Part shown: piece after piece, positions 12,238-26,645 of the stretch
Numbering within the stretch: the stretch's first letter is position 1
Layout of the letters: each line of letters starts with the position of its first letter
IMG/VR virus record: IMGVR_UViG_3300035034_001038
Location: 1-27,005 of that record
DNA from: a virus
DNA length: 27,005 nucleotides
Reading direction: 5' to 3' (one strand)
Made by a program: the position numbers and the translations under genes
The notes under the pieces: generated by a model
What the model was told of the DNA's origin: nothing
Database searches by the model: none
The model's input: only the letters and a program-made list of their open reading frames with translations

Positions 12238-12265
12238 TGGCTTTCGCCAGTCGTTTATTAACGAC
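12238..12265 (-). promoter_or_regulatory. Two tandem hairpins after the RNA polymerase beta fragment
   Basis: In RNA sense, GTCGTT-AATA-AACGAC (12265-12250) is followed without a gap by TGGC-GAAA-GCCA (12249-12238), the latter closed by a GNRA-type GAAA loop. The first stem starts at the last base-pair of the beta-fragment stop codon. No T run follows, so this is more likely an RNA-processing or stability element, or a translational control, than an intrinsic terminator. The next ATG is 10 nt away. Confidence 0.5.
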
Positions 12266-14010
12266 TAATCGTTGAAGGCTAACGACTTGCCTTGTAAGTC
12301 CTTAGCGCTAAGCCACTCGTACTGTTTCAAACGAGGGTTGTAAAATTTCTGGTAGATGCGTCCATCTGAACCGAGTCTGCTGTTATGCGTCGCTCGTACA
12401 TCAATACCAGCTTTCTCAGAGTTTCCTGACCAGTATCCTATGCCCGATTTACCTCTAACAAATAAGAGTCCGGATTTAACTGTAGCACAGTATACTAGTC
12501 CATTATAGTTTTCTTTCTTGTGGTGATGTGGTAAAACCACACGTTTATTGTGCTTATGTATGGAAACGATATAGACGTCTTTGTAGTGAGGTTCTCTATT
12601 ATCTTTTTCAATGGATCTATTTACGGCAAGCCCAAGCCCAATACAAAGCCGTTCCACATCATCCGCCAGCTGCCTTGATGTTGCAGTGTAAGCATAGTGA
12701 CTTGCATTAATACGCCCATCACCAAGCATTAGCGTATTGAGTAAAGCTGCACGCGCCCTCACAGAAGTTTTAAATAGTTCTTCAGGTATAGACTTATCGC
12801 AACATAGTCCAAATTGCTTGCAGTATAACGTTAAAGCTTTACCACCGATAGCAAATTCGCCTGACTTTTCGTGGTAGCTCCACACAAACCCACACGCATT
12901 TAAAACACTTTCTATGTGCGCACAGACATCTGGGTTTACACTTTTAGATTGGCTTATCTTTACCATGTAGTGCTTTTTCTTGGTATTTATATGAGTACTA
13001 CCCTCTGATAAGTAGTAACCCAAAAACTCCGCAAAGTCTACCATATCAATCGGTTTATGGTTTTTAACACCGCCACATTTTAATCCTTGGTGATCTTTTG
13101 ATCTCTCCACTAATGGTATTTGGAATTTTTCTACAGGGTTTTTACTTTCTAAACACACACCTATTCCTGTTAACAGGTTGAACTGCGAAACTCCGTATAG
13201 GTCCATCGCTTGTTCAAATTTGTAACCTGTTTTCCAGCTATTTCTACTATAAAACACTCTATGGTTTGGTGTTACCATTTGGTCAATAAACTTAGTTGTA
13301 AAACCATATAGAGTACCGCTATAGTGTTCAACTATTAGCCTAGAAGGTTGTTCAAAAGTTAAACAACTTGGGTCCTGAGAATTATCCGTGGTTAACAGTT
13401 TATCTTGTTCTGTTACATCCAGCCATTTTTTCCACCCACTATCTGTGTATACGTACGAGTCCGGTTTAAAACATTCAGGCCCAGCAATTACGTCCAAGAA
13501 CCCGAACTCACTTGGGTTCACATTTTGCATTTCTTCGGTAATAGCACTACTTGTACCAATACCACCTGGGCCCATCTGTGTGATTCTAAACTGCTGTTCG
13601 TTTAACAGGATTGGGTTTGTTTCTTCGCCTGGAGTACTGAGTGGGTTACCCACCAGCTGACCTTCGGTATAGTCTGAAAGGAAATTTCCAGGAAGATACT
13701 TTAAAGACTTCTTCTTGGACAGTTTTCGCATAAGATTGCGGGCAGTCTTTCCTGCATCAATCTTGATTCGCTCAGCAATTAAATCACCAGTTGAATAAAT
13801 CTTTTTAAACTGAAGGGCATCCCGGTCGTCCGGTTCTGCCTCTCCCCTGTTGATTGCAAGGAGCTTGTTACTGCCTTGAAGAATGTTATCCACACTAAGG
13901 AATTGCTCATCATCGTGTTCAATGGATGCAGCAGCTAGTTTTTTAAATTGCTTGGCTGACTTCTTTTTTGCATCGATTTTTGCTCTTATCTTTTGCGCTA
14001 TCTTATTCAT
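12265..14010 (-). CDS. RNA polymerase beta subunit, central fragment, interrupted by an intein
   Basis: The 581-residue precursor yields a beta-like protein of about 230 residues after removal of the intein (residues 180-530). Extein residues 60-179 align with bacterial RpoB from DDIDHLGNRRIRSVGE to the rifampicin region: NPILLNEQQFRITQMGPGGI (132-151) matches E. coli [20 protein letters not shown] without gaps. VNPSEFGFLDVIAGPE (164-179) matches VHPTHYGRVCPIETPE, and the C-extein SEKAGI matches GPNIGL. The product stops soon after (WLSAKDLQGKSLAFND), so the beta C-terminal half must be encoded elsewhere. Its ATG overlaps the upstream fragment's stop (TAATG), with a strong GGAGG 9 nt before it, which favours coupled, balanced synthesis. 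It is probably part of a phage-encoded multisubunit polymerase. Confidence 0.9.
   Translation of the reverse strand: MNKIAQKIRAKIDAKKKSAKQFKKLAAASIEHDDEQFLSVDNILQGSNKLLAINRGEAEPDDRDALQFKKIYSTGDLIAERIKIDAGKTARNLMRKLSKKKSLKYLPGNFLSDYTEGQLVGNPLSTPGEETNPILLNEQQFRITQMGPGGIGTSSAITEEMQNVNPSEFGFLDVIAGPECFKPDSYVYTDSGWKKWLDVTEQDKLLTTDNSQDPSCLTFEQPSRLIVEHYSGTLYGFTTKFIDQMVTPNHRVFYSRNSWKTGYKFEQAMDLYGVSQFNLLTGIGVCLESKNPVEKFQIPLVERSKDHQGLKCGGVKNHKPIDMVDFAEFLGYYLSEGSTHINTKKKHYMVKISQSKSVNPDVCAHIESVLNACGFVWSYHEKSGEFAIGGKALTLYCKQFGLCCDKSIPEELFKTSVRARAALLNTLMLGDGRINASHYAYTATSRQLADDVERLCIGLGLAVNRSIEKDNREPHYKDVYIVSIHKHNKRVVLPHHHKKENYNGLVYCATVKSGLLFVRGKSGIGYWSGNSEKAGIDVRATHNSRLGSDGRIYQKFYNPRLKQYEWLSAKDLQGKSLAFND
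12421..13473 (-). mobile_element. Intein with LAGLIDADG homing endonuclease
   Basis: The 351-residue intervening segment (precursor residues 180-530) begins with Cys180 (CFKPDSYVYTDSGWKKW, block A). It has TPNHRVFY at 247-254 (block B with the catalytic His). Two LAGLIDADG-like helices are present, EFLGYYLSEGS (328-338) and LLNTLMLGDGR (423-433), each with an acidic residue for metal binding. It ends with LVYCATVKSGLLFVRG and GYWSGN (blocks F and G). Asn530 is the terminal residue and Ser531 the +1 nucleophile; the penultimate residue is Gly rather than the usual His, seen in some other active inteins. It excises itself from the protein; the endonuclease would spread the element to intein-free beta genes. 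Confidence 0.93.
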
Positions 14011-14795
14011 TAAGCGTTGCCTCCTAGTGTTGATCTCATTGTACTACCAAGAACAATGTTGTTCTCGATGGCTTCCCGTATCTTTTCCATACGCTGTTGT
14101 TCGTCATACTCCTCTTTATCGTATGGGTGAAGCTTTGTGAAAAGTTTGTTGATGTCACGACGATCATACTTCTCGGCATTAATTCTGTAAACCTCGTCTC
14201 CCCAGTTCTCGCGAATCGTTGAGTCTGGGACACCCATAGCTTTGAGTACTGAGTAAAGCTTCAAACTACTACCGCCAATCTCCATGCGGAACAGTGATGT
14301 TTCAGGCTCAAAGTTTACACGGAATGCTCTACCGCTTCCGGGTTTAACGTTGTAGTGAACCTCTAACTGACCGTTGTTCTTGCGGCGAGAGTATGCGCCA
14401 GGTAGTAGCCTAGCCTGGCGCATACTGGTATAGTTTGAGCCGTTGTGCACAAATGTACCACGATCCGTAAGATAGGGTACACTCATGATGGTTTTGTTTT
14501 CAGACCTGTCTAACTCTTCACCCGTCTCTCTGTCTTTCAAGATTACAGTACCTTTAAGTGGGGTACTTAATTTACCCTTACCCATTCGTGCTGCTTTCTC
14601 ATCCTTGGGACCAAAGAACTTGTCGCTATACTTTAGATCGCTTAGCTCCATTCGGACAGTTCCATACTCGCGTGGAAAAGATTTCTCCACACTTTGCAGT
14701 GTCTTATCAAAGATATCTTTGCGCCAGTGTCCCATGTCAGTGAACTCATGCAGTTCTACATCAGTGGGTAAAACTTCTTTAGGTGTTTCGGGCAT
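14010..14795 (-). CDS. RNA polymerase beta subunit, N-terminal (protrusion) fragment
   Basis: The 261-residue protein matches the first part of bacterial RpoB. IMSVPYLTDRGTFVHNG corresponds to E. coli GEIPLMTDNGTFVINGTE, and RQARLLPGAYSRR to QLHRSPGVFFD. RAFRVNFEPETSLFRMEIGG followed by LYSVLKAMGVPDSTI corresponds to the strand-and-helix segment DFEFDPKDNLFVRIDRR...ILRALNYTTEQI. The large beta lobe that follows in bacteria is missing; the next gene resumes near the DDIDHLGNRR region. So the split falls where the lobe would be inserted. The end overlaps the next gene as TAATG. Upstream there is a hairpin at 14814-14835 and no Shine-Dalgarno sequence. It probably assembles with the central fragment and other subunits outside the window. 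Confidence 0.88.
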   Translation of the reverse strand: MPETPKEVLPTDVELHEFTDMGHWRKDIFDKTLQSVEKSFPREYGTVRMELSDLKYSDKFFGPKDEKAARMGKGKLSTPLKGTVILKDRETGEELDRSENKTIMSVPYLTDRGTFVHNGSNYTSMRQARLLPGAYSRRKNNGQLEVHYNVKPGSGRAFRVNFEPETSLFRMEIGGSSLKLYSVLKAMGVPDSTIRENWGDEVYRINAEKYDRRDINKLFTKLHPYDKEEYDEQQRMEKIREAIENNIVLGSTMRSTLGGNA

Positions 14796-21761: not shown

Positions 21762-23114
21762 TTATCTCGGTCTTAGGAGTAATCCTTTGGCACCCTTGCT
21801 CCTTACAAGCTGATGAAATTGCGATGCACGCAAGCTTATATGTATTGAGTCCTCACTGAAGTTGTACAGGTGAATACTTTCCGGGCCCTTGGCGCGGCTT
21901 AATGCTACGTAGGCCTGACCATCAGAAAAGCACTGACTAATGTCAGATAGATACTTTTCTAGAGTCATGCCTTGACTCTTGTGGATAGTTATAGCCCAAG
22001 CAAGAATTAGCGGGTACTGCTTTCGTTGCGCAATAATCTTATCCCCACGCGTCATCTCCCATATAGCTCGTTTGATGTCGTCTTTGATTCCAATACTATC
22101 GAAATTGACAACCATACTTCCCTGACCGATGCGTTCGTAGTCACCGAGGTAACCATTAATCATACCCTCCTGGTTTCTGATGGACATAACACGACAACCT
22201 TTACGTAGTTTCAGTATGGATGGTGCAATGCAGTTCTTTTCCATGAGTTGAGCCTTTGGTCCACTATCAATCGAAAAGAAGGTCTCCTCTTTTTCGTCAA
22301 TTTTGCCAAGCATTCTCTCGTTGAGATTGTCCGCTTGATACCGGTGGGTCATTAGTTTGATTACATCATCCTCGTCCTCAGGCAACCGTACAAACTGTTT
22401 GAAGTATTTGATTGTACTGTCAGTAATCTTTCCCAGCCTCAAGTCATTCAAGTTAACAATAAGCTCTTCGTCATCTTGTCGAAAGATCTTTGTTAACTCA
22501 AAAGTCCGAATTCGGGCATCCCTCCATGCATCGCTATCAAACGCGTAGTTTGTTTTCTTACCAGGCTCTACAGGTGGTAGCTGCATAAAGTCTCCAAAGA
22601 GAATTATCTGCGCACCGCCGAACGGCTGGTCTACTTGTTTAACACTGCGTAGTAGGAAATCTACCAGGTCGAGAAACTTTGCACTAATCATCGAAACTTC
22701 ATCAATGATTAGTGCTGTGCATTGCTCGACCCTACGCTTTGTTTTTGGGTCCCTAATACATGTAGCCAACAGCTTGTCTTCGTTGTATTCCGAGAATCCG
22801 CCCAGGCCGAAGAATGCGTGTAGCGTACAACCGCCGACATTGATGGCAGCTATACCTGTACTTGCTGTGACAAACGCGTGCTCGATTCTTGACTCTACCT
22901 CTCGTAAGAGGCAGGACTTTCCAACACCGCCGGAGCCAGTTACACATACGTTCCCACCAGCGAGAATACGTTCCATGATAGCTTCTTGCTCTTCCGACAA
23001 CACAATCTGAGGCTTTTCGGATAATTCTGCATCAGGAATGTCATCGAAGTCAAAGTCCTCAAACTCGTCCTCATCCTCTTTTTGGATTTGGTTTTTTTTC
23101 AATTTAGATGCCAA
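21762..23114 (-). CDS. Pif1/RecD-like superfamily 1 DNA helicase
   Basis: A 450-residue 5'-3' type helicase, probably acting at the replication fork or in recombination as Dda does in T4. Motifs: VTGSGGVGKSCLL at 58-70 (Walker A), TASTGIAAINVGGCTLHAFFG at 83-103 (Ia, Pif1 type), LIIDEVSM at 135-142 (II), LFGDFMQLPPVEP at 172-184 (III), AITIHKSQGMTLEK and AYVALSRAK near the C-terminus (V and VI). The acidic N-terminus (EDEDEFEDFDFDD) is probably a protein contact. The start is a TTG at 23114, inside the polymerase gene's end (11-nt overlap); the next ATG would remove too much of the protein. Confidence 0.93.
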   Translation of the reverse strand: MASKLKKNQIQKEDEDEFEDFDFDDIPDAELSEKPQIVLSEEQEAIMERILAGGNVCVTGSGGVGKSCLLREVESRIEHAFVTASTGIAAINVGGCTLHAFFGLGGFSEYNEDKLLATCIRDPKTKRRVEQCTALIIDEVSMISAKFLDLVDFLLRSVKQVDQPFGGAQIILFGDFMQLPPVEPGKKTNYAFDSDAWRDARIRTFELTKIFRQDDEELIVNLNDLRLGKITDSTIKYFKQFVRLPEDEDDVIKLMTHRYQADNLNERMLGKIDEKEETFFSIDSGPKAQLMEKNCIAPSILKLRKGCRVMSIRNQEGMINGYLGDYERIGQGSMVVNFDSIGIKDDIKRAIWEMTRGDKIIAQRKQYPLILAWAITIHKSQGMTLEKYLSDISQCFSDGQAYVALSRAKGPESIHLYNFSEDSIHISLRASQFHQLVRSKGAKGLLLRPR

Positions 23115-24289
23115 GTTTTTCTTTCTCTTCGTCGGTTGGACTAACGGACCACCGCTTGGTGATACTACAGTCTAGGTTGAACTTGAGCCTACCACCAGGT
23201 AGGTCTACATAGTTTCGTTCTCGCAAGCACTCTTCCATAAGGCGCTTTGCTTCATCACGTTCTTCAATTGGGGCGTGTATATACAACGCATCATACAGAG
23301 GCGCCACCACTGTAGCCCTCATCCCTCGTTGTCGGAACTCGTCTACTAACATTACGACAGCCTTGGCCAAGTAATCGGCCACAAGAGACTGCATTGGGAA
23401 GTTGCTTGCTTGACGTTTTAACCCACTAAGGATTGATTTCTTACGCCAACTACTTACCTCACTACCCCTATGTACGTGAAAGTGCCTCTTAGCGCCTGTA
23501 GGGGATATGTAGCATCCTTGCTCTACAACGTCGTCCATTACACGGGTTAGAAAGTCCCAAGCCTCCGGATTGGATTGGCTATACACATCAATCAAGTTCT
23601 GACCGGTCTCCTTTGCAGGCTTTTCACCGGTCGCAATCTCGATTAACATATTCAATAGTCCTGGGGACGATTGATACGGTATTTGGAAATTGCCCACCTT
23701 CCCAGCTGCACGTTCCTTGGCCTTGGACATCTTCTCACGAGGCTTATTCATGAACAACTCGTGTTCACACATCTCCCAGTGAACGTCACGCTTCGGCCGC
23801 TTTGGACTTCCATCATCATTACGAACAATGACGTCCTCAATCTCCTCTATTGGTGTGACAAGCTCTGGGTCCCACTCGCTCTTCGCGTAAGGTGTCACCC
23901 CTTCTACATAACCAACGCGTACTTCAGATTCCTTACCAGTCTCTGGGTCTGCTACAATAACAAACTGTGGGTCTGGTTCAGTTAGTCGCGCTATTAGGTT
24001 CTTGTCGTTTGAGAGGTACGCAATAGAGAACACCTCGGCCGTCGCATAGTCCATATCAACAAAGCACCAGTCTTCGAATGCTTTAAAGCACCATCGAATG
24101 GGTACAGGGTCTTCAATCTTATCTGGTAGCTCTTCACGCTCTTCCTCTGTCTTTGTATCTAGGAAACGTTCGTAAGCCTCATCAATAGCGTCCGTGCCAT
24201 AAACCTTTTTAAGGAAATCTTTTGCACGTTCAAAACCACCGGTCACCCGTTTAGACAGATAAGCCGGTAGATTAAGAATATTAGGTTTT
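23104..24289 (-). CDS. DNA polymerase family A, exon 2 (fingers and palm)
   Basis: The C-terminal part (spliced residues 678-1072) carries the polymerase active site. Motif A is DMDYATAEVFSIAYLS with catalytic D758 and conserved E763. Motif B is R871-x3-K875-x3-F879-x3-Y883 (ERAAGKVGNFQIPYQ), and RQASNFPMQSLVADYLAKA matches the R-A-N-P-Q helix. Motif C is APLYDALYIHAP with catalytic D1011, where the usual H-D-E reads Y-D-A. Before the first in-frame start-like codon (GTG at 24246) the frame continues upstream through VKPNILNLPAYLSKR, the polymerase PNLQNIP segment, to the predicted 3' splice site at 24290/24289. So this is an exon, not a separate gene. It overlaps the Pif1-like gene by 11 nt. 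Confidence 0.9.
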
Positions 24290-24612
24290 CATTTTATGTT
24301 ACGTAATACCAAGGTTTGTACTACTCTGCATGTTGCCATGCAGTTCAGATCATATCTTCGGCTTTCGCCGCCACCCGTTTCGAACCACCAATTTCCTTTT
24401 GTGGCCCTACGTCTTTCGACTGATCGTTGAACGTTCCTCTTTTGAGGCTTCGCTGCTAGTTGTCTCAAAGAGAGTTTCCAGCAATTAGAGTGATTTTAAA
24501 TCGGCAATTTACCTAATTCTTCTTTTAAGAAGTTCTTTATTTCTTTAAACGTTGGCAAGGCATACAACAGAAACTAACCGACCAAATACTTTTGTAAAGT
24601 ATTGTTTTGTTT
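24290..24612 (-). ncRNA. Group I self-splicing intron in the DNA polymerase gene
   Basis: This 323-nt stretch interrupts the polymerase frame. The 5' exon end GAUCGGU pairs with GUCGGUU (24582-24576) as P1, with the required U.G at the splice site, and an extra 8-bp hairpin (AAUACUUU/AAAGUAUU) fills the P1 loop. The core has AAUUGCUGGAAAC (24486-24474, P/P4), R-like GUUCAACGAUCAGU and S-like AAGAUAUGAUCUGA; GAUCA (24425-24421) pairs with UGAUC (24352-24348) as P7, replacing the common GACUA/UAGUC. P9 is a 7-bp stem with a GCAA loop (24343-24326). The intron ends in G (24290). Excision restores frame: TCG GT|A AAA CCT. No homing-endonuclease ORF is present. Confidence 0.9.
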
Positions 24613-26645
24613 ACCGATCTAGGTCGGCCAGTTTCCGTCATTAGGAAGTTGGTGTGAACCTTACCATCTGAGCGTATATGCTTCTCAAGGCCTTGACCGT
24701 CCGTTTTCAGAAAAGTCTTAACTACTTGATATACAGCAAGATACTCAAGCAACAGCTTTACATCTTCATCATTTTCACCAAGGATCGCAAGCACATCTTT
24801 ATCTGTCGAAGGGGTATAGTTCCGACGTTGTGCCTCTGGTAGGGCTTCTACCTTTTCCCAGTCCACGGATGGGCCGTCTGTTCCTGTGCTCTTAATTGGA
24901 GTCATACCCTTAAACTCAAACAGCCAACGCATCTTGTGTGCGGATGAGTTTGGGTTAAAGTTCCGTGCATCCTCCCAGTGTTTCAGTGTTTCAAACTTTT
25001 CTGCAAACACCTTTGCACCGAGATGATTCTTCAGGTCTTTTACACCTATGTCGCCTAGTGTTAGTTGATTGCAAACCTTTACAGGGTCAGTTGCGTGCTG
25101 ATGAATCAGCATTTGAACAGCGAAGTCCGCCTTTTCTCGTACGCGAGCCTTAAATGTTTCACGCATCAACTCAGACACCATGGTAAAGTTCTTACGAACC
25201 TTGCGTGTGTCTTCACGGTCAAGTGGTATACCGGCTTCGCTCATATGCGCATAACCGTCAGTTACATACGGAAGACGTATACCATAGAAGTAGTTGTATG
25301 TTCCATCATTCATTAGGAGCTTGGTCAGCTTGGGCCAAGCTCGGAACGGAACATCAACGTCAGCACAACTGTATGGGAATAGTATCTTTGTGGGTATAGC
25401 CCCGTAACCACCATCAGACATCTTTGCTTTGTTCTTCTTTTTCCAGATCGCAAGTGGGATATCATATCGACCCATTGTTGTGAATCGAATAGATAGTCGC
25501 TCAAGCTTCAAGTCGTAGGACTCGTCTACACAGTGCATACCATACATCGTATCAAAGATACATCGTTTGTATGGGTCTACACCCAACCAGTGCTTTAGCC
25601 AAACATAGTCCGCCACAAAGTTGTGACCAATGAACCGTACCTCTGGCTGGTTCATCACGGTTTGGAAGTGCTTTAGTACTTGCTTGTAACCCTCATCAGT
25701 AAACGTTCTCTTGCCTGTCTCATCAAAGAACTGCAAGCACATGGCTTGCCCAGGTTGCCAACATGCTTGTACACTTCGAAGATCACCAGAAAGGTAATCC
25801 TCACCAGCCCACTCGCAGTCAACAGAGAACACCTTGTATTTACCAGCCATCATTTCAGCAGCCCAAGCGGCCACCCTTTCAACAGTGTCCAATAGCTTAT
25901 AGTTCTGCTTGATTATCTTGTCCTCTCCACCACTGTCAGAGAAGTCCAAGTGTCGCCTTACTTCAAGAAGGTCGAATAGTTGACCCTCAAGTACTTCCGG
26001 CTTTACCACAGCAATACGAGGAGGTTGCATAACAAACAGTTTGAAGTCTCGGTAACACTCGAATTCTTGCATCTCCTGTTCCTCAACCTCTTCTCCATTA
26101 ACGGTCTTTGTTACCCACTCTCCAGTTGGTACTTTAATTCTGTGTTCGGGCGCTTCAAACCAGCCACCCATAATCTCCTTCTCTTTGAACTTCAAGTCAT
26201 AGAAGTAGTCAAAGACTGCTTTACCAAGGCACACAACAACCTTTGGTTTGCGCTGCTTGAGTTCTTTCTCAAACAGAGGAGCGCACCGTTTTAAGTCCTG
26301 AGCATCGGGCTTTAGCTTTCGAGCACGCGGAAGGCAATACTTACACAGGGTTGTGTAGTAGTGGTCTTTCATGTCTATACCAGCCCGCATTGAAGAGCGC
26401 CCCAGGAGTGCACCTGGGGAACCCTTTAATAACATTGCAGGTGAAAACTTATCATCCAACTCTTCTTCTAGTGGACACGTTGATACAAACATAATATCTG
26501 GCTTGGTACGATTACCACGGCCGATAAAATATGTTCCCCCGTCTTGATGCTCAAAGGTGTGTGTCGAATCAGAGTGACCCAACACGGTTTTTGGTGCGAC
26601 TACGTCGTAATCGATTTCAGGTATTTCTACTTGCTTGAATGCCAT
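24613..26645 (-). CDS. DNA polymerase family A, exon 1 (UDG-like and 3'-5' exonuclease domains)
   Basis: Residues 1-677 of the phage replicative DNA polymerase. Residues about 38-210 resemble family 4 uracil-DNA glycosylase: IMFVSTCPLEEE, GALLGRSSMRAGI, YTTLCKYCLP, LKRCAPLFEKEL and VVVCLGKAVFDY, as in SPO1-type polymerases. Residues 270-440 form a DEDDy proofreading exonuclease: VFSVDCEWA (D276, E278), FIGHNFVADYVWL (D346) and YSCADVDV (Y425, D429). After the thumb, SDGKVHTNFLMTETGRPRS reaches the TGR segment and the 5' splice site at 24613/24612. Unspliced, the frame would run 25 codons into the intron and stop at 24537, giving an inactive product. Spliced, the protein has 1072 residues. The ATG at 26645 lies 40 nt past the upstream stop. 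Confidence 0.9.

What the first reader, a model, noticed from the sequence alone, without database searches (positions are those of the whole stretch)
24290..24612. ORF-less group I intron splits the DNA polymerase gene at a catalytic motif
Seen: polymerase homology breaks off after TETGRPRS and resumes with KPNILNLP. Between them is 323 nt with group I core elements, a P1 with U.G at the splice site, P7 GAUCA/UGAUC (a compensatory variant of the common GACUA/UAGUC) and a terminal G. Joining 24613 to 24289 keeps frame and gives the canonical TGRxxS-x-KPN order. Known: SPO1-type phages carry a group I intron with an HNH endonuclease in a similar UDG-containing polymerase. Here the endonuclease is absent, so the intron is either degenerate as a mobile element or mobilised by an enzyme encoded elsewhere. 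Gene callers would report two truncated polymerases.
Basis: partly seen in the sequence, partly recalled or inferred. Interest (0 to 1): 0.85.

Follow-up and report, generated by a model that had tools for sequence, protein, structure and literature searches.

The report
Small self-splicing intron in phage polymerase
A phage's DNA-copying enzyme gene is interrupted by a small RNA segment that should cut itself out; such introns are well known, but this one sits at a position not described before and carries a stretch that pairs strongly with the gene just upstream, which may make its removal depend on ribosomes.

Summary
Window 24290-24612 (minus strand) is a 323-nt group I intron (RF00028, 60 bits, E 4e-13). 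Removing it joins UDG, exonuclease and family-A polymerase domains into one 1072-aa protein, with the same TGRxxSxxPNxxNxP spacing as four intron-free relatives and Taq polymerase. Independently, intron nt 96-116 complement the ligated exon junction (9-bp P1 with U·G, plus P10; 0/2000 shuffles as good), which supports both splice sites. The site (Pol I codon 672, phase 2) is 7 nt upstream of SPO1's and matches none of the three published sites (674, 676, 881). No homing endonuclease is in the intron or this 27-kb fragment, except a LAGLIDADG intein elsewhere. ORF-less introns in this gene family are already known. The unusual part is the 5' domain: P2 is missing, the guide sequence sits 107 nt from the splice site, and nt 30-60 pair with exon 1 over 29 bp (-42.5 kcal/mol, z about -6.6), competing with P1. 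A ribosome covering exon 1 would release P1, so I propose translation-gated splicing (probability about 0.35). Splicing itself is untested.

The parts
24613..26645 (-). Exon 1 of the DNA polymerase: UDG domain, 3'-5' exonuclease, thumb up to TGRPRSV
24290..24612 (-). Group I intron, 323 nt, no ORF of note; ends in G
23104..24289 (-). Exon 2: KPNILNLP and the polymerase palm and fingers (DNA_pol_A), stop codon included
24613..24621 (-). Exon 1 strand of P1 (UAGAUCGGU), U.G at the 5' splice site
24497..24517 (-). Internal guide sequence, intron nt 96-116: P10 strand (96-107) and P1 strand (108-116)
24553..24583 (-). Antisense element in the P1 loop, intron nt 30-60
24622..24641 (-). Exon 1 partner (-29 to -10), 20 contiguous pairs with intron nt 30-49
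24658..24666 (-). Exon 1 partner (-54 to -46), 9 pairs with intron nt 52-60
24585..24603 (-). Local hairpin in the P1 loop, intron nt 10-28
24537..24539 (-). First stop codon in the exon 1 frame if unspliced (intron nt 74-76)
24488..24492 (-). P3 5' strand
24372..24376 (-). P3 3' strand
24421..24425 (-). P7 5' strand, GAUCA
24348..24352 (-). P7 3' strand, UGAUC, after J8/7 AAGAUA
24326..24343 (-). P9 hairpin with GCAA loop
24303..24324 (-). P9.1 hairpin

Best explanation
This is a functional, self-splicing, ORF-less group I intron of the phage IA kind. It is inserted in codon 672 (E. coli Pol I numbering), phase 2, of a UDG-exonuclease-polymerase gene, and splicing restores the only full polymerase frame. 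The guide sequence at nt 96-116 aligns both exons through P1 and P10. The 5' domain also carries a 31-nt element antisense to exon 1. My further inference, at lower confidence (about 0.35), is that this makes splicing wait for translation: the exon-intron helix keeps P1 from forming until a ribosome reading exon 1 opens it, then stops at nt 74-76 and leaves the guide sequence and core free to fold. Shown by computation: the intron, its boundaries, the core and the extra helix. Inferred: splicing activity and the translation gate.
For: RF00028 match over the whole model. Spliced frame and three domains. Same motif spacing in four intron-free relatives and in Taq polymerase. Guide sequence complementary to the ligated junction, 0/2000 shuffles as good, best 24-mers of the gene are those at the junction. 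Core helices covary with 22 related introns. For the gate: exon-intron helix -42.5 kcal/mol against -18.4 +/- 3.7, 20 contiguous pairs against at most 13 in 58 related introns, fold switches to P1 when exon nt -60 to -11 are masked; translation of the upstream exon is reported to aid splicing of bacterial group I introns (PMC3073962).
Against: No transcript data. No relative carries the same intron, so the extra helix has no evolutionary support. The nested fold favours the extra helix over P1 by about 15 kcal/mol, which could also mean poor splicing. With only nt 59-89 masked (ribosome at the stop) the extra helix is predicted to re-form. The late stop codon is not significant by itself (14% of shuffles).
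Confidence: 0.88

Rival explanations
1. The intron splices normally and the exon-antisense helix has no function: a chance or historical pairing that translation keeps open, or remains of a lost insert in the P1 loop.
For: No relatives to show conservation. The P1 loop has no match in the loci held or in phages. Other introns of this kind splice without such a helix.
Against: The helix is far outside chance and depends on G.U pairs, with a Watson-Crick run no longer than chance, which speaks for RNA-level pairing and against a recent DNA inverted duplication.
Confidence: 0.45
2. The intron is mobile through an endonuclease encoded elsewhere in the phage (collaborative homing). This is compatible with the main explanation.
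For: ORF-less introns moved by free-standing endonucleases are known in phages (PMC3984707). The contig is a fragment, so a gene could lie outside it.
Against: No HNH or GIY-YIG family in the ORFs scanned; the one LAGLIDADG domain belongs to an intein in another gene.
Confidence: 0.15
3. The intron no longer splices, and the phage makes two separate polymerase fragments.
For: Both halves are open frames. The predicted favoured nested fold prevents P1.
Against: Core, guide sequence and both splice sites are intact. The second ORF starts at a GTG only after the conserved KPNILNLP. Relatives are single-chain.
Confidence: 0.05

Closest known systems
SPO1 / SP82 / Bastille / Pf-WMP3 DNA-polymerase introns (IA2, site 674)
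   Same: Group I intron in the same TGR motif of a family-A phage polymerase; SPO1's polymerase was retrieved as a relative of this one
   Different: Site is 7 nt upstream; no HNH endonuclease; no P2; 107 nt between 5' splice site and guide strand
phiL7 polymerase intron (site 676) and phiI / W31 introns (site 881)
   Same: Group I introns in family-A phage polymerases (PMC3428280)
   Different: Other sites; both kinds encode HNH endonucleases
Bastillevirinae polymerase introns of the same PHROG 17 family (PMC11878797)
   Same: Same polymerase family; 13 of 45 introns in that survey are not counted as disrupted by a nuclease loop
   Different: Exact sites not all mapped here, so an identical site cannot be fully excluded
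phiNIT1 nrdE intron (AP013029)
   Same: Closest annotated intron by sequence, 73% over 181 nt of the core
   Different: Other host gene; has a P2 hairpin where this intron has its guide strand
Engineered trans-splicing ribozymes with an extended guide sequence (PMC6155759)
   Same: An antisense stretch in addition to P1 that pairs with the substrate RNA
   Different: Designed, acts in trans and pairs on the other side of the splice site; here it is natural, in cis and upstream

Membership tests
Group I intron | Covariance-model match to RF00028 | tested here: met
   60 bits against gathering 50, full model
Group I intron | Conserved core P3-P9 with covariation | tested here: met
   Both-side changes without breaks in P7, and covariation in P3, P5, P9
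[quoted passage not shown]
Group I intron | Guanosine-initiated self-splicing | not testable with these tools
   No RNA experiment possible
Subgroup IA (IA2) | Extra helices P7.1 and P7.2 between P7 and P3 | tested here: inconclusive
   Both hairpins can be drawn and relatives share the core, but no IA2-specific model was run
SPO1-type polymerase intron | Insertion at Pol I site 674 | tested here: not met
   Codon 672 phase 2 by alignment
SPO1-type polymerase intron | Intron-encoded HNH endonuclease | tested here: not met
   323 nt, no such ORF
UDG-exonuclease-PolA phage polymerase (PHROG 17) | UDG, 3'-5' exonuclease and PolA domains in one chain | tested here: met
   After splicing, all three above cut-off; PHROG 17 on both halves

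The most novel reading that the evidence does not exclude
The intron encodes its own translation gate: a 29-bp helix between exon 1 and the P1 loop keeps the 5' splice site from pairing with the guide sequence until a ribosome reading exon 1 opens it, so polymerase mRNA matures only while it is being translated. The excised intron would also stay complementary to the mature mRNA in stretches between about -54 and +10.
Probability: 0.35. Interest if true: 0.65.

Novelty: new variant of a known kind. Interest (0 to 1): 0.45.

Why it matters
It adds a site, beside the three published ones, at which group I introns interrupt family-A phage polymerases, in a phage with no close relative in the collections searched. 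If the exon-antisense helix works as proposed, it would be a compact natural case of splicing gated by translation, directly testable by breaking and restoring one helix. Annotation pipelines would report this polymerase as two broken genes.

Tried and rejected
Endonuclease remnant in the P1 loop: the 25-aa open stretch has no match in phages; its resemblance to exon 2 is reached by 7/1000 shuffles against exon 2 but 21/300 against the whole protein, so it is not claimed. Guide strand at nt 31 (7 bp with several G.U): rejected for the 9-bp strand at nt 108 with P10. DNA inverted duplication as origin of the antisense element: Watson-Crick run of 6 equals chance. P7 variant as a unique marker: rejected, other viral introns carry it. 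Searches for sister phages by polymerase, helicase, ThyX and RNA polymerase found no close relative with this polymerase. None of 92 intron cores matching the pattern in the loci held, nor of 38 stretches with the same J8/7-P7', lies beside PolA homology. Plasmids: one weak hit. The P6 row used a wrong register and is ignored. Two literature queries failed on punctuation.

Full report
Observation. The window is a 27,005-base linear virus record. On the minus strand, polymerase homology runs from 26645 to 24613 and resumes at 24289. RF00028 matches 24540-24326 over the whole model, 60 bits, E 4.2e-13; it is the only RNA family above threshold. No tRNA was found.

The join. Removing 24290-24612 gives a single frame of 1072 aa with Pfam UDG, 3'-5' exonuclease and DNA_pol_A, each above its cut-off. 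Four intron-free IMG/VR relatives read TGRLASRDPNLLNIP or close variants at the motif, the same length as TGRPRSVKPNILNLP here, and Taq polymerase aligns across the join without a gap. Exon 2 holds the palm and fingers, so neither half alone is a polymerase (inference from the fold of family-A enzymes).

Splice sites. Intron nt 96-116 pair with the ligated exons: P1 of 9 bp ending in the U.G at the 5' site, and P10 of 2+7 bp. The duplex energy is -20.9 kcal/mol; 0 of 2000 dinucleotide shuffles of nt 1-120 and 2 of 2000 of the whole intron are as good, and among 3195 24-mers of the gene the best are those overlapping the junction. This supports both boundaries without relying on protein homology.

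Core. P3 to P9.1 are in place, with P7.1 and P7.2. Against 22 related introns, P7 shows 44 both-side changes and none broken; P3, P5 and P9 also covary (its P6 row used a wrong register and is ignored). GAUCA/UGAUC is rare among introns found by the core pattern (2 of 73) but recurs in other viral introns. P2 is absent: most related introns have a hairpin between P1 and P3, a minority do not (read by eye); a review states that P2 is missing in some group I introns (PMC3984707).

Site. Published polymerase sites are 674 (SPO1, SP82, Bastille, Pf-WMP3), 676 (phiL7) and 881 (phiI, W31) in E. coli numbering (PMC3428280). By alignment this one is in codon 672, phase 2, 7 nt upstream of SPO1's. I did not map every Bastillevirinae polymerase intron, so an unmapped match remains possible.

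Endonuclease. None in the intron, and no HNH or GIY-YIG family among the window ORFs scanned. A LAGLIDADG intein lies in the RNA polymerase beta fragment at 12265-14010. ORF-less introns in this gene family are known (PMC11878797), and such introns can be moved by separate endonucleases (PMC3984707).

The 5' domain. The guide strand lies 107 nt from the 5' site. Within that loop, nt 30-60 pair with exon 1 nt -29 to -10 (20 bp, 5 of them G.U) and -54 to -46 (9 bp). The duplex is -42.5 kcal/mol (with 4 further pairs) against a null of -18.4 +/- 3.7, 0 of 1000 shuffles; apart from its own complement, the best partner of that stretch in 27 kb on either strand is this exon. Shuffles reach at most 15-16 contiguous pairs; 58 related introns have at most 13 and 16 with the same P7 at most 14. 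Watson-Crick pairs alone give a run of 6, no longer than chance, so the complementarity is at the RNA level. Nested folding favours this helix over P1 by about 15 kcal/mol, and masking exon nt -60 to -11 switches the fold to P1; a pseudoknot with both helices was not modelled. The first in-frame stop is at nt 74-76, after the antisense element and before the guide sequence, though 14% of shuffles have a stop that late. Translation of the upstream exon is reported as necessary for efficient splicing in a number of bacterial group I introns, and the stop codon usually lies just after the 5' junction (PMC3073962). I infer a translation gate, probability about 0.35; a functionless pairing is the main rival.

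Verdict. A new member of a well-known kind, at a site not among those published, with an unusual 5' domain: a new variant of a known kind.

Noticed in passing
12265-14010 (-): An RNA polymerase beta-like fragment with an in-frame intein (about FGFLDVIAGPE^C...GN^SEKAGID) carrying a LAGLIDADG_3 domain.
   Followed up: partly
14010-14795 (-): A separate ORF matches the N-terminal part of RNA polymerase beta, so the phage appears to split this subunit over several genes.
   Followed up: partly
383-23114 (-): Replication-type gene set: PIF1/Dda helicase, UvsX-like recombinase, DEAD helicase, SbcD-like exonuclease, ThyX, ATP-dependent ligase. Only ThyX has relatives above 50% identity in IMG/VR.
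   Followed up: partly
L145:2685-6020 (Bacillus phage fHSPT3): A single long ORF annotated as hypothetical holds two polymerase pieces about 1.2 kb apart just before the TGR motif; this could be an intein at nearly the same place.
   Followed up: no
L071:910-2013 (-) and L025:586-1689 (+): Introns with the closest core (88% over 86 nt) lie in two large viral contigs beside an HNH endonuclease ORF with the same family scores, near an RNA polymerase match in L071.
   Followed up: partly
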